Below the pieces are notes generated by a model that did no database searches, had not been told where the DNA came from, and saw only the letters and a program-made list of their open reading frames with translations. Positions 1 through 33,658 of a stretch of DNA of 64,000 bases are shown piece after piece. The stretch lies in assembly GCF_000722635.1 (NCBI RefSeq), contig NZ_JOKH01000005.1, forward strand, positions 329,646 through 393,645, read 5' to 3'. Position 1 is the first letter of the stretch. Each line of letters opens with the position of its first letter. The DNA comes from Endozoicomonas numazuensis. Lineage in GTDB: Bacteria; Pseudomonadota; Gammaproteobacteria; Pseudomonadales; Endozoicomonadaceae. The translations under genes and the position numbers were made by a program.

Positions 1-474
<474 letters not shown>

Positions 475-10680: not shown

Positions 10681-11583
10681 TTAACTGTTTAAAGGTTTGT
10701 CATCCCAGCCCAAAATAAATTCAGAGACTTTCTTGATCACTCCGCTTCGATATTTTTTCCTGTTCAGTAACAGGTAAAAATGGCGATTCAGTGTCAAATC
10801 TGCCACACCGATTGTCGATAGCAGGCCCGCTTTTTTGGCTCGCCACACTGCCAGGTTTGAAATACAGCCAATACCCAGCCCTTCCATAACGGCCTGCTTG
10901 ACCGCTTCTGCCCGATTCAGACTCATAATAACGTTGGGTGTACACAAACGAGTTGCCAACACTTCATCAAACAACTCTCGTGTACCTGAACCAGGTTCCC
11001 TGAGTATCCACTCTTCTTCTTTAAGGGCTTGAAGACCAACTGTCTTCCCGGCCATTGGATGGTCAGGATGACAGATAATCACCAACTCATCTTCACGCCA
11101 AGGAACCACTTCAATATCCGGATGCAGACAACTGCCTTCTACCACGGCGAGGTCAATCTCCATCGCCAGCAATCTTTGCTGGATGCTCCGTGTATTATCA
11201 ACAGCCAGTTCAGCTCTGATATGGGGGAACTCCCTGAAAAAATCCCCCAATATACGGGGCATCAGGTTGTTACCGATGGTAGAACTCGCATGAATCTTCA
11301 GAGTTCCCTGTTCGTAGCAGCTATCTTCTATAAACTGGGTTTCAATCTCGTGGGCTCGATCAATCAGCTCAGCAGCCATTGGCAGCAATGCTCGCCCAGA
11401 GTCGTTCAATGTCATTGAGGCACCAGCGTGCCTATCAAACAAAGGTCCTAAATGTTTTTCAAGCTCGGAAAGAGCCATACTGGCAGCAGGTTGTGAAATA
11501 AACAGGGATTCTGCCGCCGCAGTGACTCTACCGGACTGGGCGACCGCCTTGAAGATTTCAAGCTGTCTCAATGTGATATGCAT
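10681..11583 (-). CDS. LysR-family transcriptional regulator, YeiE-like
   Basis: 300 aa, normal LysR length. Residues 3-60 form the winged helix-turn-helix (MHITLRQLEIFKAVAQSGRV, AAESLFISQPAASMALSELE). Residues ~90-290 are the periplasmic-binding-like effector domain. The opening and the motifs KIHASSTIGN, DIEVVPWREDELVIICHP and WILREPGSGTRE resemble YeiE of enterobacteria, a regulator linked to sulfite and iron responses. One residue is missing in the usual LG-x-x-LFDR motif (HLGPLFDR). It is separated from the atp promoter by about 80 bases and probably transcribed on its own. The effector ligand cannot be told from sequence. Confidence 0.88.
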   Translation of the reverse strand: MHITLRQLEIFKAVAQSGRVTAAAESLFISQPAASMALSELEKHLGPLFDRHAGASMTLNDSGRALLPMAAELIDRAHEIETQFIEDSCYEQGTLKIHASSTIGNNLMPRILGDFFREFPHIRAELAVDNTRSIQQRLLAMEIDLAVVEGSCLHPDIEVVPWREDELVIICHPDHPMAGKTVGLQALKEEEWILREPGSGTRELFDEVLATRLCTPNVIMSLNRAEAVKQAVMEGLGIGCISNLAVWRAKKAGLLSTIGVADLTLNRHFYLLLNRKKYRSGVIKKVSEFILGWDDKPLNS

Positions 11584-11779
11584 CTACTGCTCCGATATCA
11601 ATTGCCAACTCAAAAAGGACGGAACGACCTCAGGTGGCATAAATTAAGGACAATTGAAACCAATCTCAAGAGACATAAACCAATCTTATATCTCTCGCAT
11701 AGATAATTGATTTTTAATTATAAAGCTAATTTCTCATACTCCTCCCATCTCGTTAAAACATTAAGTATCAGGAGTTAGT

Positions 11780-11935
11780 ATGAGCGAACAAAGCATCAAG
11801 ACCTGGGTGGAATTGAAGAAAATGACCCCAGCCTTTAAGGAAGTACTTCGCTATAAGCACATTGTAAAGAAGACCACCTCATCTCTCGATAACCTGGAGG
11901 ATTTCTGCAAAGAAGCCGACAAGGTTCTGAAATAA
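11780..11935 (+). CDS. Small charged protein, 51 aa (paralogue 1)
   Basis: ATG at 11780 follows a good AGGAG ribosome-binding site. The product is 51 aa, hydrophilic, rich in lysine and probably helical, with no membrane segment or signal peptide. It is clearly related to the 54-aa product at 12139-12303. Shared residues include W-V-x-L-K-K near the start and S-L-x-x-L-x-x-F-x-x-EADK-x-LK at the end. Two paralogues in tandem with matching ribosome-binding sites argue that this is a real gene. The family is not recognised, and no function is proposed. Confidence 0.65.
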   Translation: MSEQSIKTWVELKKMTPAFKEVLRYKHIVKKTTSSLDNLEDFCKEADKVLK

Positions 11936-11966
11936 GCTCACCCCTTTTAGTTAACATGCTATCGAA

Positions 11967-12060
11967 GACCCATAAGACCTCCTTATAAGACTCTCTTGAT
12001 TTATTGATTATCCAGAGGGTAAAGCGACTCCATATAATGAAATCACCATCACCAGACCAG
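11967..12060 (+). promoter_or_regulatory. Promoter module of small gene 2 (duplicated block, copy A)
   Basis: This 94-base block aligns without gaps to 12579-12672, about 68 of 94 bases identical by hand count. Both copies contain a perfect TATAAT (here 12033-12038) and a conserved TTGATTATCCAG centred about 27 bases upstream of it. The TTGATT lies 23 bases from TATAAT, too far for a standard -35, so the conserved block may be an activator site. The conserved CACCATCA lies just after the -10. Confidence 0.6.
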
Positions 12061-12078
12061 TAAAACAAACCATCGCAA

Positions 12079-12109
12079 GAATCTTTTAAACCCGTACACA
12101 AAAAGATTC
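12079..12109 (+). promoter_or_regulatory. 5' leader hairpin of small gene 2
   Basis: GAATCTTTT (12079-12087) and AAAAGATTC (12101-12109) form a perfect 9-bp stem in the leader, about 20 bases before the ribosome-binding site. It could influence translation or RNA stability. Confidence 0.45.
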
Positions 12110-12138
12110 ATGTGATGATCATTAGATCAGGAGTGGCT

Positions 12139-12303
12139 ATGCACAGCGAATATGATGATCCAGCTGTAAGACATTGGGTCGATCTTAAAAAACAAACTTC
12201 CGTTCTTGAAAGAATTGTAAGCTGCAAACAAAAAAGGAAGCATACATCAACACTCGATAGTCTCGGAGCTTTTTTTCGAGAAGCTGATAAGCATCTAAAG
12301 TAA
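12139..12303 (+). CDS. Small charged protein, 54 aa (paralogue 2)
   Basis: Starts at ATG 12139 behind AGGAG (12129-12133); an upstream in-frame ATG at 12112 has no comparable site. The 54-aa product begins MHSEYDDPAVRHWVDLKKQT and ends GAFFREADKHLK. It shares the WVxLKK and L-x-x-F-x-x-EADK-x-LK patterns with the 51-aa product upstream. It is hydrophilic and basic in the middle, without a signal peptide or membrane segment. The gene has its own promoter block and a strong downstream terminator, so it is an independent transcription unit. Function unknown. Confidence 0.7.
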   Translation: MHSEYDDPAVRHWVDLKKQTSVLERIVSCKQKRKHTSTLDSLGAFFREADKHLK

Positions 12304-12327
12304 TACCGTCTTGAAAAAGTTACCGAG

Positions 12328-12433
12328 TTTTGTCCACCCTCCCGACCTCATGAAGGACAAAATCCGATAGCTTTTTCCAGGCTAAATAGTGTGCGACAAG
12401 GTATTAGGCTACTTATTAGTAGCCCTTTTTTTA
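12328..12433 (+). terminator. 3' structured region and terminator of small gene 2
   Basis: An 8-bp stem (TTTTGTCC at 12328-12335, GGACAAAA at 12355-12362) is followed by a conserved linker containing GTGCGACAAGGTATTAGGCT. The intrinsic terminator follows: GGCTAC (12407-12412), GTAGCC (12419-12424) and a long T run. The linker recurs at 12918-12940 before another terminator. Confidence 0.75.
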
Positions 12434-12578
12434 TTATTAGCATTTTAATGTCGATAAATTCAGCCCAGCTTATAGTGTGTTTCAAAACAAAAACAGTTAT
12501 ACCTTTCTGTCATTTCTTTCTTCTTATAAATCCACTTAAAGGCTGATAGACAGGGCTCTTGCTCATATTAATGCAGCT

Positions 12579-12672
12579 GACCCATAAAGTAAGCTTATAA
12601 GAGTATGTAGTTTTATTGATTATCCAGGCAGACATTCATCTCCCTATAATCGACTCACCATCATCAGATCAG
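12579..12672 (+). promoter_or_regulatory. Promoter module, copy B (no intact gene downstream)
   Basis: Ungapped match to 11967-12060, including TTGATTATCCAG and a perfect TATAAT at 12645-12650. Downstream, only ATG-CAC plus four codons precede a stop, so the small gene present after copy A is missing or decayed here. Confidence 0.6.
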
Positions 12673-12961
12673 CAACAACGCCATGCACTTTACTGCTTTC
12701 TAATTCCGACAATGAAAGCTTGATAAGTGCAACAGAGATTTAGAGTCATCATTGACTCAACAATTTAAAATATTAAATATATTTGTTATTAAAAACAGAA
12801 AAAAGGTCAACTCTAAACGCTTAAAGCGTCTAAGCAGTGAAAGTGCTATCGAATGTTGTCTATTGAGACCCATCATCATTATCAAGACAAAATTCGATAG
12901 CTTTTTCTAAGCTGACCAGTGTGCGACAAGGTATTAGGCTGCCCCTGGCAGCCGTTTTTTT
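12655..12961 (+). ncRNA. Candidate structured RNA or decayed third small-gene module
   Basis: Between promoter copy B and a strong terminator lie about 300 bases without an ORF. Visible structure: GAGTCA/TGACTC (12743-12758); a long stem of GCTATCGAAT (12845-12854) with ATTCGATAGC (12892-12901), extended after one mismatch by TTGTCT/AGACAA; and the terminator GGCTGCC/GGCAGCC plus T7 (12937-12961). The part from about 12885 to 12940 is nearly the same as 12355-12410. A retained promoter, a conserved 3' part and lost coding capacity suggest either a small RNA or a pseudogene remnant. Confidence 0.45.
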
Positions 12962-13034
12962 ATCTACCCTCTTAATTACTCACTTCAAATCTGCGAACTC
13001 ATTCAGAGTTAATTAGCATTTCTTATGCTTGGAT

Positions 13035-14966
13035 TTAGATAGGCAAATACAACATCAATGCAACAAAGTTGAGAAGCAATATCTGCCATAACGTTCCAGA
13101 CTGAATCATTGCGGCATCAGAAGTAGGAGTAGTTGAAGGAGTAGGCATTAAATAATGGATTTGTTCCTCATTTAATGAGCTCAGTTGAGACATCGCCAGC
13201 AGATACACAGGTTGGTTATTTGCCAGGATAGCCGCTTCTTTTAATCCTTGCAGAGACTTTCTCCTCCTGGGAAAAAACTCTGTTAACTCTCGCTGAAAAT
13301 AGTCAACGGCACGATTATATTCCTCAGAGATAATGACGACAGCTGCAGTTGGCTCAGTTCCACTCGCTTGAACCGGTTGATAAGTGACTCCTGACCTTCC
13401 CATCTCCATATAAAGCTCGCCAATATATTCGAGTAATGGCTTCACTACCAAGGGAACACCATGATCCCAGTGCATATTCAGGTATTGAGACTCAACGGCC
13501 AAAACTGTTCTTAGCGCACCACTCAAATCTTGCTTGTGTCTCAGCTCTTCCGCTTTCAACTGTTCAACCATAATAGGTATGGCATCGCTGTTCATAGGAG
13601 AAAGATGGAGACTCGTATCTGTGAGCAACTGCTGTAGCTGATTTCTGAAAGTTTCCGCAACTGCATATTGCTGCTGAGTTAAAGCATTCCAGCTCTTCAT
13701 GAAATAAAAAGCGGTTTTCCCCCAGCCAGACATCTGATTATCCGAAGTAGCTTGCTGGCTCAACGTCCTTAAATGAGCACTCTCTTGGGGTAGTTCCAAC
13801 ATCAGATAAGTTTGTTCGAAAGCCAAATAAGTTCGCATAACTCGAGTATCTGCATCGGTTGTGCCTGATTTAGCCTGAAGATTTGAAATTCTCTGGTACA
13901 GATCACTCGAATCACTCCAGGCTTCATCATAAAGACCTGCCTGCAAGAGAGCATACACACGCCATAAATGTTCATGAAAAGCGAGTGATGAATCACTCAA
14001 TCTCAAATCTGTTGCTCTCCGAAGTGACTTATTCCAAGCCGACTGATTTATAGCATAGACATTCACCCAATCTCCTCTGGCAAAATAATAATGAGTGGGC
14101 ATATGAGATAAATGCACAGAACTGGTGTTCTTCCCAGACTCATTCAATGACTGTAACCAAAAAGCAGATTTTTGAGCAGCAGGCATTGTTCTGGCCAGAT
14201 GCGGACTTTCAGAAGCATGTGTCAGGTAATGATGTAAACCAGGATGGTTCGCCAGCTCAGTTCTCTCTAATAGAGCACTCATTTCATTAATCACTGAAAT
14301 TTCCAGCGGATAATCCCTCACGCTCTGCCGGGTAGCTAAATGAGCAAGACTCCTGAAAACCAGAATTTCTGACTCAAGTTGGTCATTATCTGTAACTTGC
14401 TGATCAAGATACTGGTAGAACAGCTGAACGTTTGAGCCCGACTCAAAAGGCGGCTTGCTGCGACTGTTATCAGCATTACTGAATAATTTTTGTGCTGCCG
14501 TTATAAGTATCCGCTCTGATGTACTGAAGGTTTCTGTAGCATTGTTTTTTGCTTCATTCAGCCTGGCCAGTGTGCTGTCTCCTGCATCAAAGTCACGCGT
14601 AAACCAAAGAATCTGGTAGCTGCACATGAGCTCTCCCCAGATGGCCATGACAAAATCCTGTCCATTATGATCTTGCTGAAGATGTTGAGCATTTCTGAAT
14701 GCAGCCCTGGCTTCAGGGTATTCGAAGGCATGAAGAAGCTTCAGACCTGTTATAAAAGAAGATCGGGCTGTCTCAATGACAGGTTCAGACAAGGAAAAAG
14801 AGATTTCTCCCAGATCTTTTCCTCCCTGCCAAGGGCCATATACTTGACCATTGTCGTAGCTGTAGGGCGTTGACGATCTTTTCGTGTAGACATCAGCATT
14901 TAAAGATTGACAGGAAAAGAAAAAGATAGCCAAAAGCGCAAAGTAAAAGCTCTTAAAGAGATTCAT
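13035..14966 (-). CDS. Secreted tetratricopeptide-like protein, 643 aa
   Basis: The N-terminus (MNLFKSFYFALLAIFFFSCQ) is a signal peptide; SCQ suggests a possible lipoprotein cysteine at residue 19. The body is helical with TPR-like repeats. The GLKLLHAFEYPEARAAFRNA segment followed by an AIWGELMCSY segment is typical of a family of TPR proteins found near metallohydrolases. Histidine-rich motifs HPGLHHYLTHASE and SHMPTHYYFARGDW are conserved-looking. The last ~18 residues are hydrophobic and could be a C-terminal membrane anchor, after a Pro/Thr/Ser-rich spacer. It lies 69 bases downstream of the DUF3604 gene on the same strand, suggesting co-transcription and a joint envelope role. The exact function is unknown. 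Confidence 0.7.
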   Translation of the reverse strand: MNLFKSFYFALLAIFFFSCQSLNADVYTKRSSTPYSYDNGQVYGPWQGGKDLGEISFSLSEPVIETARSSFITGLKLLHAFEYPEARAAFRNAQHLQQDHNGQDFVMAIWGELMCSYQILWFTRDFDAGDSTLARLNEAKNNATETFSTSERILITAAQKLFSNADNSRSKPPFESGSNVQLFYQYLDQQVTDNDQLESEILVFRSLAHLATRQSVRDYPLEISVINEMSALLERTELANHPGLHHYLTHASESPHLARTMPAAQKSAFWLQSLNESGKNTSSVHLSHMPTHYYFARGDWVNVYAINQSAWNKSLRRATDLRLSDSSLAFHEHLWRVYALLQAGLYDEAWSDSSDLYQRISNLQAKSGTTDADTRVMRTYLAFEQTYLMLELPQESAHLRTLSQQATSDNQMSGWGKTAFYFMKSWNALTQQQYAVAETFRNQLQQLLTDTSLHLSPMNSDAIPIMVEQLKAEELRHKQDLSGALRTVLAVESQYLNMHWDHGVPLVVKPLLEYIGELYMEMGRSGVTYQPVQASGTEPTAAVVIISEEYNRAVDYFQRELTEFFPRRRKSLQGLKEAAILANNQPVYLLAMSQLSSLNEEQIHYLMPTPSTTPTSDAAMIQSGTLWQILLLNFVALMLYLPI

Positions 14967-15035: not shown

Positions 15036-16925
15036 CTAAGAAGGGGTATACCAGATCGGGGAAGACCAGGCTCTTTCCTGAATTATGGGCTGATGATCAG
15101 GGGAACAACAACCTTCAAGACCTTCATCAATTGTTTCGGGCTTGCTGCAATCGACTTTGCTGGCACTGCAAATGTACTGGCTCCAGCGGCAGCTTGGGTT
15201 CTCAATGACCCGTGTATAGTAAAATGCACTCTGCTCAGGATTAAATTCCGGATCCTGCCATACCGTACAAAGGCTGGCGTAGCCCTCCCCCTTTCTTTCA
15301 CATGTATTCAGATCAACCGAGGCTCCATTGTCAGGATTACCTGCCACCTCGAATACTTTTTCCCGGCTCTGGCCTTTATTATCAATCCAGCCTTTAATAA
15401 CCTGAACACGTTGTAACGAAGTCCCAGGGCTATTTTTTGTACCCGGATCCTTCAGTGCAGAAATAGCAAAAGAGGGTGCTTTTTCACTGATAGTGAGGTC
15501 TCCCCCCATAGGAACGCCCCTTGTGTACCCCTCCTTTATAAAGTCATGGCTCTTACAAAGGTTTTCAGGGTAATCATGCCCCCCAAAGAATCGAACTGAA
15601 ATTCTTGGCCCGCTGGTGCCATACGCTTCTCTGCGTTGCATTGCAGCAAACAATGACTCCCGGGTATTTTCTTCCGCCCAGAGAACAGCCAAACCACCCG
15701 GGTTAAATTCCAGAGCATCAGGTAATCCTGCTTTTACTTTATCTTTGTTGGGACTGCCCGCACCGCCATGCCCAATAAAATTATCCTCATCTGTAGCACC
15801 TGGAGCCCCCAAATGAGTATCGGTACTGGCAATCATGCCGAATTTAAAGGGGTTTTCTCCCAGCTTTTTTTCCTGCTGTAAGCCTTCAACCAAAACCTGT
15901 CGTAGAAACCCTCCATTAGACTTTGGAGCTTCTTTCATAAAACTGAACGTTCTACCGGAAAACTGGTTATAGGGAAGCTGTTCAAAATTACAAAGCTCGT
16001 CAGCATTCCCCAAAGGAGCATCCTGACTAAAGTAACACTCGGAACTGCCTTTATGCTGCATCACTTCCACAAGCTTTTCATAGGATGCCCTGAGTTTTGC
16101 ATCTTCTGATGTGATCGGTGTTCCATCCTTTATTACGGTTGGGAACATCAGACCATTACTCAGGTTAGAATTATGGGGAATCGTCAAGGCGTCACAACCG
16201 GATTCATTCGAGCGACACTCTTCTTCAAGAGATTGAAACAGCTGTTCAGCGGAAGGTCCGTCGATATAACTGACTGGCAACTCAGGCACCTGACTGTTTT
16301 TGAAGATAACATTGCGATGGATGTTTTGACTGTCTGGAGCACCTGTCCACTCATAGCCAATAAACGAGGTAAATTGGCAACGGTCATTTGCACTTTCTGC
16401 AGCTGCTTGTATTTGCTGCCATGGACCTATGGCGGCCTTACGACATAGCTCACCATTTTCACCACAGAAACCCAGTCGTTTTCCTTCGGACATACCGACC
16501 AGATTAAAAAGAAAATAGCCGCCACGGGGAAAGTCCCTCAGCATCCAGCACTGCCAGGATGAATAGAGTTCACTGTCAGGATTATTACAGACACTCACCT
16601 CACCCAGAAGTTCTGCATGATCACTGACCATGGCAAAATCCAGAGGTCTGCTTAATTGCAGATACCGTAGTGCTTTTCCGTTCTCATCCCAGGGCTGAAC
16701 CCCCAGCTTTTTACCACGTGCAAATTCATAAGCCTGTTCCGGAGTCGTTCGAGTATCCTGGGTACTGGCATCCAGGGAATATCGGGAGTGAATATGGGTA
16801 TCACCAAAAAAAGCGGTTCGTAAAGGATTGTAATCTTCACAAACCACTGAACGATTGGAAAAAGCGGTGGATGCTGTCATACATAAAATTACAGCAAGTA
16901 GTGATCGCACATATTTAAACGACAT
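15036..16925 (-). CDS. DUF3604 family protein (PHP-like metallohydrolase fold)
   Basis: 629 aa with an N-terminal signal peptide (MSFKYVRSLLAVILCMTAST...AFS), so exported. It matches the DUF3604 family: FFGDTHIHSRYSLDA near residue 40 resembles the HxH metal motif of PHP phosphoesterases, with further candidate ligands in SDHAELLGE, IPHNSNLSNG and STDTHLGAPG. At least a dozen cysteines suggest disulfides in the periplasm. The substrate of the family is not established. Followed by the TPR-like gene after 69 bases; a decayed transporter and cpdB lie upstream on the same strand. Confidence 0.85.
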   Translation of the reverse strand: MSFKYVRSLLAVILCMTASTAFSNRSVVCEDYNPLRTAFFGDTHIHSRYSLDASTQDTRTTPEQAYEFARGKKLGVQPWDENGKALRYLQLSRPLDFAMVSDHAELLGEVSVCNNPDSELYSSWQCWMLRDFPRGGYFLFNLVGMSEGKRLGFCGENGELCRKAAIGPWQQIQAAAESANDRCQFTSFIGYEWTGAPDSQNIHRNVIFKNSQVPELPVSYIDGPSAEQLFQSLEEECRSNESGCDALTIPHNSNLSNGLMFPTVIKDGTPITSEDAKLRASYEKLVEVMQHKGSSECYFSQDAPLGNADELCNFEQLPYNQFSGRTFSFMKEAPKSNGGFLRQVLVEGLQQEKKLGENPFKFGMIASTDTHLGAPGATDEDNFIGHGGAGSPNKDKVKAGLPDALEFNPGGLAVLWAEENTRESLFAAMQRREAYGTSGPRISVRFFGGHDYPENLCKSHDFIKEGYTRGVPMGGDLTISEKAPSFAISALKDPGTKNSPGTSLQRVQVIKGWIDNKGQSREKVFEVAGNPDNGASVDLNTCERKGEGYASLCTVWQDPEFNPEQSAFYYTRVIENPSCRWSQYICSASKVDCSKPETIDEGLEGCCSPDHQPIIQERAWSSPIWYTPS

Positions 16926-31930: not shown

Positions 31931-33658
31931 ATGAAACATGCGCCTACAGCTATAGAATCTTCCATAGCACTGGAAAATGACCATACTCCACTCTCTTCAG
32001 AACGTGGCGGTACAAGGTCGTTTTCGCGTCAAGGCCTTTCAATATACTGGAGAGCTGGCAGCTGGTTGCTGGCTCTTCTGCTTTTCACACCAGTATTGGC
32101 TCTGGTCTATGAAGCATCAGCCCCTACAGGTGAGATTTTCTCTCATCTGCGAAATACCGTGCTGGGTACGTACATTCTTAATACGGTATTGCTGATCTCT
32201 GGTGTTGGAATTCTGGGTTTGATTCTTGCCCTTCCCGCAGCCTGGGTAATGGCAAACTGTGAAATTCCCGGTAAACGTTATCTGCAATGGCTTCTGGTAC
32301 TCCCCTTGGCCATGCCTTCGTATATCGTCGCCTATATTTACACCGATCTGCTTGAATTCGCCGGGCCTATCCAAAGGTTGTTAAGAGACCTGACCGGTTG
32401 GAAAAGTGCTGCTGATTATTATTTCCCTGATATTCGCAGTCTGGGAGGTGCCGTTATTATTCTGGCCCTGGTGCTTTATCCCTATCTTTATCTTCTGGCC
32501 AGAACTGCTTTTCTTGAGCACTCTCAAAGTCAGATACTGGCTAGCCGATTACTCGGCTGTTCGCCGGTTTCCAGTTTTCTCAGAGTCTCCGTTCCCATGG
32601 CAAGACCCGCCATTATTACCGGACTGGCATTAATGGGCATTGAAACCCTGGGAGACTTTGCCACTGTCGATTACTTTGCAGTCCCTACTTTAACGACAGC
32701 TGTCTATGATACCTGGCTGGGTTATGGCAGTTTAAATGCTGCCGCTAAACTCTCTGCCATTATGCTGGTTGTAGTAATGCTACTGATCTCATTAGAAAAA
32801 TACAGTCGCAGAAGACAGCAGCTCTACCAAAAAAATACGGGACAGGATCATAAAAAAGCCAGCCCTCTAATGGGCTGGAAAAAAATACTGGCTCTTTTCT
32901 GGTGCTGGATGCTGGTCATCCTTGGGTTTCTTTTACCCGCTATGGTTTTACTGGATTATGTTTTTAAATATTTCAGTGAATCCTGGAATGTTGAATTACT
33001 GACATACAGTCTAAATAGTTTGAAAGTCTCTCTGGGTGCTGCAACATTTGCGACAATGATTGCTCTGTTTTTGGGGTTGTATCAACGACTGCAGAAAAGT
33101 CGTTTGGCCAGTATTCCTTCCCGTCTGGTATCAACAGGCTACGCCTTACCGGGAAATGTTCTGGCAATCGGTGTTCTGACCCCATTAACACTGTCCGATC
33201 ACGGGCTGAATGGTATTATTATGGCCTTTGAATATCCGCCTGTCGGTCTGATTTTCAGCGGTTCTATTTTTGCCATTATTTTCGCTTACACTGTGCGTTT
33301 TTCAGCAGTCGCTGTAGGTAGCGTCGAGTCCAGTCTGGGAAGAGTTTCTCCCTCTCTTGATATGGCCAGTAGAACGCTGGGATGTAAGCCTTCAGAAATG
33401 GTCAGGCGAGTCCACATTCCCATGGTTAGAAAGGGTTTGTTGACTGGCTTTCTGCTGGTTTTCATAGAGTCCATGAAAGAGCTTCCGGCAGCGCTTCTAT
33501 TAAGACCTTTTGGTTTCGAGTCACTGGCAACCTGGGTGTTTCAGTTTGTTTCTGATGAAAAACTGGAGCAGGCGGCATTAGCTGCTTTGATACTGGTTCT
33601 GGCCGGACTGGTCCCCCTGATACTTCTGAACCGATCACTGGAGGCAGAACAAAAATGA
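31931..33658 (+). CDS. Fe(3+) ABC transporter, permease with two fused domains
   Basis: 575 aa, about 12 hydrophobic segments. Two MetI-type permease halves, each ending in an EAA-like loop that contacts the ATPase: ASRLLGCSPVSSFLRVSVPMARPA in the first half, read as short conserved pieces, and ASRTLGCKPSEMVRRVHIPM in the second. This fused layout is typical of FbpB/SfuB ferric permeases. The first ~35 residues are a cytoplasmic polar extension. It follows the binding protein after 128 bases and overlaps the ATPase gene by 4 bases. Confidence 0.93.
   Translation: MKHAPTAIESSIALENDHTPLSSERGGTRSFSRQGLSIYWRAGSWLLALLLFTPVLALVYEASAPTGEIFSHLRNTVLGTYILNTVLLISGVGILGLILALPAAWVMANCEIPGKRYLQWLLVLPLAMPSYIVAYIYTDLLEFAGPIQRLLRDLTGWKSAADYYFPDIRSLGGAVIILALVLYPYLYLLARTAFLEHSQSQILASRLLGCSPVSSFLRVSVPMARPAIITGLALMGIETLGDFATVDYFAVPTLTTAVYDTWLGYGSLNAAAKLSAIMLVVVMLLISLEKYSRRRQQLYQKNTGQDHKKASPLMGWKKILALFWCWMLVILGFLLPAMVLLDYVFKYFSESWNVELLTYSLNSLKVSLGAATFATMIALFLGLYQRLQKSRLASIPSRLVSTGYALPGNVLAIGVLTPLTLSDHGLNGIIMAFEYPPVGLIFSGSIFAIIFAYTVRFSAVAVGSVESSLGRVSPSLDMASRTLGCKPSEMVRRVHIPMVRKGLLTGFLLVFIESMKELPAALLLRPFGFESLATWVFQFVSDEKLEQAALAALILVLAGLVPLILLNRSLEAEQK

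What the first reader, a model, noticed from the sequence alone, without database searches (positions are those of the whole stretch)
11760..12970. Repeated modules of tiny paralogous genes with conserved promoter blocks and structured 3' ends
Two adjacent ORFs of 51 and 54 aa are paralogues (shared WVxLKK and EADKxLK ends) with matching AGGAG sites. A 94-base promoter block before the second (11967-12060) recurs ungapped at 12579-12672, with TTGATTATCCAG and TATAAT conserved. The 3' region with GTGCGACAAGGTATTAGGCT before a strong terminator recurs too (12391-12433 and 12918-12961). Duplication with divergence of spacers but preservation of control elements suggests selection on a small-protein or RNA system not matching any family I know.
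Basis: partly seen in the sequence, partly recalled or inferred. Interest (0 to 1): 0.72.

Follow-up and report, generated by a model that had tools for sequence, protein, structure and literature searches.

The report
LysR-controlled small-protein and RNA array
Next to a regulator gene, these marine bacteria carry a family of tiny proteins that matches no family in the libraries searched; in this species the gene unit is repeated three times, and the third copy has lost its protein but appears to have been kept as a structured RNA.

Summary
The two ORFs (pepA, pepB) belong to a small-protein family found here only in Endozoicomonadaceae: open frame in 26 of 38 genomes, in pieces in a 27th, dN/dS 0.03-0.15. 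No match in 372 genomes of the order outside the family or in the other 368 of 369 class genomes. The same 27 genomes carry an orthologue (57% identity or more) of the divergent YeiE-like LysR gene; the other 11 have neither, and in G024 both are broken. The 'promoter block' reads as a LysR-type operator-promoter: T-N11-A dyad near -65, conserved box near -41, then a -10. The third drives no pep ORF: a structured RNA of about 305 nt, in 4 genomes, resembling the pepB transcript without its ORF. Best reading: a dedicated LysR switch controlling small proteins, a likely dual-function mRNA and an ORF-less RNA descended from it. Expression, ligand and targets are untested.

The parts
10681..11583 (-). 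YeiE-like LysR-type regulator gene, divergent from the array
   Evidence: LysR HTH and substrate domains; YeiE model 291 bits, cutoff 480; PDB 8sbf, 8sbh, 7erp; orthologue at 57% or more in 27 of 38 family genomes
11675..11740 (+). LysR-type operator-promoter A: T-N11-A dyad 11675-11689, TTGATT box from 11707, likely -10 (CATACT) 11735-11740
11780..11935 (+). pepA, 51-aa small protein
   Evidence: dN/dS 0.03-0.07, 3 of 3 pairs
11972..12038 (+). LysR-type operator-promoter B: dyad 11972-11986, box from 12004, -10 12033-12038; inferred start about 12045
12070..12118 (+). SL1 leader hairpin of the pepB transcript, loop with CCGUAC
   Evidence: z -7.8; arm-swap test
12139..12303 (+). pepB, 54-aa small protein
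   Evidence: dN/dS 0.04-0.15, 9 of 10 pairs
12313..12377 (+). SL2 hairpin in the pepB 3' UTR
12388..12410 (+). Conserved linker AGTGTGCGACAAGGTATTAGGCT (candidate seed), copy 1
12407..12432 (+). Intrinsic terminator of the pepB transcript
   Evidence: one stem pair changed on both sides: GC to AU
12584..12650 (+). LysR-type operator-promoter C, before the ORF-less unit: dyad 12584-12598, box from 12616, -10 12645-12650
12657..12961 (+). RNA unit without a pep ORF, about 305 nt (inferred transcript)
   Evidence: homologues in G019, G027, G028
12682..12733 (+). SL1 of the ORF-less RNA; loop UCCGACA identical in 4 of 4
   Evidence: (z -4.9)
12839..12907 (+). SL2 of the ORF-less RNA
12918..12940 (+). 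Conserved linker, copy 2
12937..12961 (+). Intrinsic terminator of the ORF-less RNA

Best explanation
A dedicated LysR-type regulator (YeiE-like, divergently encoded) binds a T-N11-A dyad near -65 and a second site near -41 and, when it senses its effector, activates a tandem array of three transcription units. Units 1 and 2 make PepA and PepB, about 50-aa basic soluble proteins predicted as two helices, members of a small-protein family seen here only in Endozoicomonadaceae. Unit 2 is probably also a dual-function RNA: leader hairpin, ORF, 3' hairpin, conserved linker, U-rich terminator. Unit 3 is a paralogue of unit 2 that lost the ORF but kept operator, leader hairpin, 3' hairpin, linker and terminator, and so works as an RNA alone, most likely a base-pairing regulator through the linker. 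Shown by sequence: operator pattern, synteny, co-occurrence and joint decay, protein-level selection, RNA structure and conservation. Inferred: LysR binding and activation, the effector (a sulfite-like anion is a guess from YeiE), what the proteins do, and base pairing.
For: Operator: with spacing left free (20-45 nt), 19 of 33 upstream regions held dyad and box, all 19 at 28 nt. With that spacing fixed, a relaxed pattern is in 30 of 32 and a strict one in 29 of 32; the patterns were drawn up from these same sequences, so the independent test is the background: of 24 strict hits in 528,040 nt (20 loci, both strands) all 24 are at this locus, and of 45 hits in 38 whole genomes 30 are here and 15 elsewhere, against 10 for the reversed pattern. 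Dyad centre -65/-66 and box -40/-41 from the inferred start in the three window units. LysR orthologue in 27 of 38 genomes, the same 27 that hold the small gene open (26) or broken (G024); 0 of 11 others (Fisher p 8e-10, not corrected for phylogeny). dN/dS 0.037-0.148 in 9 of 10 pepB pairs (tenth saturated; dS above 1 in most, so rough) and 0.027-0.073 in 3 of 3 pepA pairs. SL1: z -4.2 to -7.8 in 5 of 5 pepB leaders and -2.6 to -4.9 in 4 of 4 ORF-less RNAs (stretches trimmed by eye to the hairpin, which helps z). Own arms pair best in 4 of 5 rows and 4 of 5 columns for leaders, 4 of 4 and 4 of 4 for the ORF-less RNAs. 3' modules: z -3.0 to -6.0 in 7 of 7; 93.1% of cells paired against at most 50.7% when slid; covariation score reached by 0 of 500 shuffles. 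The linker is identical in 6 of the 7 aligned modules (two degenerate pepB modules, G027 and G028, were not aligned), while LysR fourfold-site identity is 0.45-0.64 in the 6 of 10 pairs computed. Hfq is encoded in the genome.
Against: No expression, binding or phenotype data. SL2 covariation is modest: 4 pairs with changes on both sides (17 of 500 shuffles reach that) and further pair types no more than shuffles (337 of 500). The arm-swap test fails for G027's 5' arm and G028's 3' arm of the leader. G027's linker differs, its pepB linker and terminator, like G028's, are degenerate, and G026 has no unit 3. Short GTG-started frames of 13-14 codons run through linker and terminator in the four ORF-less RNAs, so a peptide there is not excluded. 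No target found for the linker: four local stretches z -0.4 to 1.3, one duplex at 33655 at a background rate of 1.2%. A second LysR copy in G018 (62%) has no small gene or operator nearby; LysR and the small gene are about 2.8 kb apart in G030 and on different contigs in G015. Structure model pTM only 0.35. The 3' module is confined to 5 of 38 genomes.
Confidence: 0.6

Rival explanations
1. Unit 3 is a decaying third pep gene: the ORF is gone and the promoter and terminator are relics with no function.
For: No pep match in unit 3 at E up to 1; G026 lacks unit 3; that ORF loss leaves relics is a common course (general knowledge).
Against: In G027 and G028 unit 3 keeps operator, linker and terminator (G027's linker with changes) while the pepB copy of linker and terminator decayed; SL1 arms of unit 3 pair best with their own in 4 of 4 and its loop is invariant in 4 of 4, with LysR fourfold identity near saturation. 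In the alignment of the four units, the spacer between SL1 and SL2 has 0-4 conserved columns of 20 in five windows (161-260) and window 101-120 has 1, against 8-17 in the other fourteen.
Confidence: 0.2
2. The small proteins bind their own leader hairpin SL1 (autoregulation), and unit 3 is a decoy RNA carrying SL1 that titrates them, CsrB-like in logic (CsrB recalled).
For: The proteins are basic (pI 9.2-10.5 in 7 of 7 computed); SL1 with a similar loop (CCGUAC or UCCGACA, likeness judged by eye) is kept in the pepB leader and in unit 3.
Against: pepA has no such leader hairpin (by eye); G026's leader loop lacks CCGUAC; one SL1 per RNA; no match to a known RNA-binding family.
Confidence: 0.15
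3. The conserved block is bound by another regulator, and the LysR gene is only a neighbour.
For: No binding assay; the operator search was by pattern only.
Against: T-N11-A dyad in the classic LysR-type position, of the published CTATA-n9-TATAG type (PMC5002191, passages; comparison by eye); joint presence and joint decay of LysR and the small gene.
Confidence: 0.08
4. A type I toxin-antitoxin or similar selfish array.
For: Tandem small ORFs with structured RNAs.
Against: Peptides are hydrophilic (GRAVY -0.61 to -0.88 in 7 computed), unlike membrane-type toxins; in G000 no complementary copy of the linker at up to 3 mismatches; the small gene sits beside LysR in 24 of 27 genomes (coordinates).
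Confidence: 0.03

Closest known systems
WatR and watS1-watS5 of Methylomonas sp. DH-1 (PMC10355033; abstract, section 10 and passages seen)
   Same: A LysR-type regulator controls several homologous genes for about 50-aa peptides through T-N11-A sites in their promoters.
   Different: WatS1-4 have a predicted transmembrane segment; the Pep proteins are basic and hydrophilic. In what I read, no tandem array and no ORF-less RNA paralogue is described.
SgrR/SgrS-SgrT of enteric bacteria (PMC4021124; passages seen)
   Same: RNA with a small ORF, then a conserved region just before the terminator, mostly with an extra stem-loop upstream of it, and a conserved intergenic region beside the regulator gene.
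   Different: SgrR is not LysR-type (recalled); no Rfam match here; here an ORF-less version sits beside the coding one in the same genome.
GcvA/GcvB (PMC1557403; passages seen)
   Same: Regulator gene divergent from a small RNA gene that it activates; GcvA is LysR-type (passages).
   Different: gcvB gives noncoding RNA without a peptide paralogue in what I read; no Rfam match here.
YeiE/YeiH of Salmonella (PMC12880088; passages seen)
   Same: YeiE-like LysR gene with a divergent target gene; the window protein resembles the YeiE structure entries.
   Different: The target there is yeiH (a membrane protein, recalled), not a small protein; the window LysR misses the YeiE and PRK10837 cutoffs, while a paralogue at G000:C3:611670 passes the latter.

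Membership tests
LysR-type regulator with classic divergent operator | LysR HTH and substrate-binding domains | tested here: met
   PF00126 and PF03466 above cutoffs
LysR-type regulator with classic divergent operator | T-N11-A dyad near -65 and second site near -35 | tested here: met
   by sequence; start site inferred from the -10
LysR-type regulator with classic divergent operator | Binding and activation by the LysR protein | not testable with these tools
   Needs gel shift, footprint or reporter
YeiE | Score above the NCBIfam YeiE cutoff | tested here: not met
   291 bits against 480 (PRK10837 subfamily: 263 against 281)
WatS | About 50-aa peptides with one transmembrane segment | tested here: not met
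   Length fits, but GRAVY is -0.61 to -0.88; two helices predicted. No dedicated transmembrane predictor was run
SgrS or another Rfam RNA family | Match to a curated covariance model | tested here: not met
   window, gathering: only 16S rRNA; 11600-13100, E up to 5: four hits, all below their gathering scores; best Ocean-VII 20.2 bits against 53.5, E 0.0047
Hfq-dependent base-pairing small RNA | Intrinsic terminator with U tail; Hfq encoded by the host | tested here: met
Hfq-dependent base-pairing small RNA | Conserved seed with a target mRNA | tested here: inconclusive
   Linker conserved; no target above background; only the window's start regions were tried
Known small-protein family | Match in Pfam, NCBIfam, PHROGs, PADLOC or PDB sequences | tested here: not met
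   none, except phrog_6725 at E 0.046 for one relative; (profile against PDB, E up to 10): three kinases, best E 0.0099, judged spurious

The most novel reading that the evidence does not exclude
A dual-function mRNA duplicated and split in place: one copy keeps protein plus RNA functions and its neighbour keeps only the RNA, both under one dedicated LysR switch. In the boldest form, the small protein reads the shared leader hairpin, and the ORF-less RNA is its decoy, so regulator, protein and RNA form one closed circuit.
Probability: 0.15. Interest if true: 0.8.

Novelty: new variant of a known kind. Interest (0 to 1): 0.52.

Why it matters
It would add a small-protein family that the searched libraries lack to a group of marine animal symbionts, give it a dedicated regulator, and offer a side-by-side case of a coding RNA and its ORF-less paralogue, which makes the question of how dual-function RNAs gain or lose their ORF directly testable across related species.

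Tried and rejected
Sigma-70 promoter reading of the block: rejected, spacing 23 nt and no consensus hit in the blocks. Known RNA families: none at gathering score except 16S rRNA at the window's edge. A pep ORF in unit 3: no pep match there at E up to 1; one search shows only short shared frames, the clearest 13-14 codons from a GTG in the linker, which I take as a by-product of linker conservation but did not exclude as a peptide. Other copies of the linker: none at up to 3 mismatches in 38 genomes beyond this locus; the covariance model hits only this locus in 5 genomes, on both strands because SL2 is nearly palindromic, plus one weak hit in G023, E 0.079. The terminator-only hit in G006 (E 0.005) was taken as chance. 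Linker target: a duplex before 33655 at -21.2 kcal/mol, at -19.7 or better in 5 of 5 genomes, rejected because 1.2% of 4000 random 120-nt stretches reach -21.1 and the site lies in conserved coding sequence (by eye). PDB profile hits to kinases: judged spurious. The alignment of two RNAs (A2) failed because I gave a wrong stretch of L040; not used. MAFFT alignments A4 and A5 are not structure-true, so pair counts were not made on them; the arm-swap test was used instead. Rows dropped: G015 from the operator count (only 67 nt upstream); the degenerate pepB modules of G027 and G028 from A3; G027 LysR from the fourfold count because my anchor string missed it. A fold search of the protein model was not obtained. 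One paper look-up gave nothing useful (PMC3658693, one passage).

Full report
What is there. The window lies in a 6.34-Mb genome (G000), placed with Endozoicomonas by its relatives: G019, of the same genus, matches the E. arenosclerae ab112 contig by length and position. In detail: two paralogous ORFs of 51 and 54 aa, a control block before the second ORF and again downstream, and a repeated 3' module with terminator. Two corrections: a third, more diverged control block lies before the first ORF, and the downstream block drives no pep ORF.

The small proteins. A search with the 54-aa protein matched 26 of 38 family genomes (E up to 0.1); a profile of 25 relatives (A1; of the 29 peptides collected, four identical or nearly identical to others were left out) added broken pieces in G024 at E 5.8e-5 and 1.7e-4. 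In the order, 12 of 391 genomes matched, all in this family, which had 19 members in that draw; in the class, 1 of 369, the own genome. Among named genomes 14 loci were found, labelled Endozoicomonas, Kistimonas or Parendozoicomonas except one labelled Salinisphaera whose contig length equals G010's. Invariant residues include W13, L16, K17, F45, E48, A49 and K51. dN/dS is 0.037-0.148 for 9 of 10 pepB pairs (the tenth has saturated dS; dS is above 1 in most, so the ratios are rough) and 0.027-0.073 for 3 of 3 pepA pairs. Seven computed proteins are basic and hydrophilic; the model shows helices 8-35 and 38-53 at mean pLDDT 78 but pTM 0.35. No family was found (weak hits are in the membership table).

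The regulator. The gene is divergent from a LysR gene. From the coordinates I count 24 of 27 genomes with the two within about 500 nt; the exceptions are G030 (about 2.8 kb), G011 (an insertion that looks like a transposon within the operator) and G015 (different contigs). LysR orthologues, taken as 57% identity or more (the next matches are at 50% or less), occur in 27 of 38 genomes: the same 27 that hold the small gene, open in 26 and broken in G024, where the LysR frame is broken too. The 11 others have neither; the LysR search was cut at E 1e-70, and G017 and G031 hold only 47-48% relatives. Fisher p is 8e-10, without phylogenetic correction. G018 has a second LysR copy (62%) without the small gene. 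The protein is nearest to 8sbf, a LysR-family entry, and also matches the YeiE entry 8sbh, but it misses the YeiE and PRK10837 cutoffs, while a paralogue elsewhere in the genome passes the second.

The control block. Aligned over genomes it is ATAA-N7-T[T/G]AT, 17 nt, T[T/C]GATT, then a -10: a T-N11-A dyad as published for LysR-type regulators (PMC5002191, passages). With free spacing, 19 of 33 regions held both parts, all at one spacing. With the spacing fixed, the relaxed form is in 30 of 32 upstream regions (28 small genes, G015 left out for lack of sequence, plus 4 ORF-less units) and the strict form in 29. Relaxed misses: G011, whose operator lies about 1.7 kb upstream, and G027's third unit, whose supplied stretch was too short and which the strict form does find. 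Strict misses, by the letters shown: G011, G012, G030. The pattern was made from these sequences, so the background counts matter: in 20 loci (528,040 nt, both strands) all 24 strict hits are at this locus; over 38 genomes there are 45 hits, 30 here and 15 elsewhere, against 10 for the reversed pattern. The regulator thus looks dedicated, within the limits of a pattern. In the window, dyad centres lie at -65 or -66 and boxes at -40 or -41 from starts assumed 12 nt after the -10's first base.

The RNAs. In five genomes (G000, G019, G026, G027, G028) the pepB transcript has a leader hairpin, SL1, with z from -4.2 to -7.8 (stretches trimmed by eye). Own arms pair best in 4 of 5 rows and 4 of 5 columns (G027's 5' arm and G028's 3' arm fail). 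Four genomes (not G026, where a sequence resembling a transposase gene follows, by eye) have the ORF-less unit, with its own SL1 (z -2.6 to -4.9; own arms best in 4 of 4 rows and columns) and invariant loop UCCGACA. Of nine 3' modules, the seven not degenerate were aligned: z -3.0 to -6.0; 93.1% of 203 cells are paired, against at most 50.7% when slid; the covariation score is reached by 0 of 500 shuffles, pairs changed on both sides (4) by 17 of 500, further pair types (11) by 337 of 500. The linker is identical in 6 of these 7. LysR fourfold sites are 0.45-0.64 identical in 6 of 10 pairs, so this conservation is not shared recency. A covariance model finds the module only here, in 5 of 38 genomes, with degenerate pepB copies in G027 and G028, and a weak hit in G023. 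pepA is lost in G027 and broken in G028 (by eye).

How it probably works. The regulator senses an effector and activates all three units; PepA and PepB act as soluble effectors; unit 2's RNA and unit 3 act as RNAs, probably through the linker. The layout of unit 2 (ORF, stem-loop, conserved stretch, terminator) recalls SgrS (PMC4021124, passages), and the host encodes Hfq. LysR control of several about 50-aa peptides is known from WatR (PMC10355033, abstract, section 10 and passages), and control of a divergent RNA gene by a LysR-type regulator from GcvA/GcvB (PMC1557403, passages). The effector is unknown; sulfite is a guess from YeiE (PMC12880088, passages). No target was found.

Novelty. 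Searches for Endozoicomonas with small protein and sRNA and with smORF found 0 papers, and with LysR and sulfite 1 paper (listing only). The parts are of known kinds; I know of no description of the small-protein family or of an ORF-less neighbour of this sort, on those searches alone. I rate it a new variant of a known kind.

Noticed in passing
L051:4750-6375 (G011): An insertion that looks like a transposon (by eye) splits the operator from the small gene, with ATTGATTT at both ends.
   Followed up: partly
L156:4622-8700 (G024): LysR and small gene are both broken, and a second degraded copy of the small gene lies about 2.8 kb further on.
   Followed up: partly
L157:5235-6182 (G018): A second LysR copy, 62% identical to the window's, without a small gene or operator found nearby.
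   Followed up: partly
L175:611-4567 (G000:C3): A closer YeiE relative lies in the region of a TauD-like dioxygenase gene and an antiporter-like gene (both named by eye).
   Followed up: no
L078: A contig labelled Salinisphaera sp. G21_0 has the same length as the Endozoicomonadaceae contig G010:C251; the label is probably wrong.
   Followed up: no
window 13035-14966: A 643-aa ORF without a significant Pfam or NCBIfam family ends next to the array; a 74% relative is in G019.
   Followed up: no
window 15036-16925: DUF3604 protein (PF12228, 597 bits).
   Followed up: no
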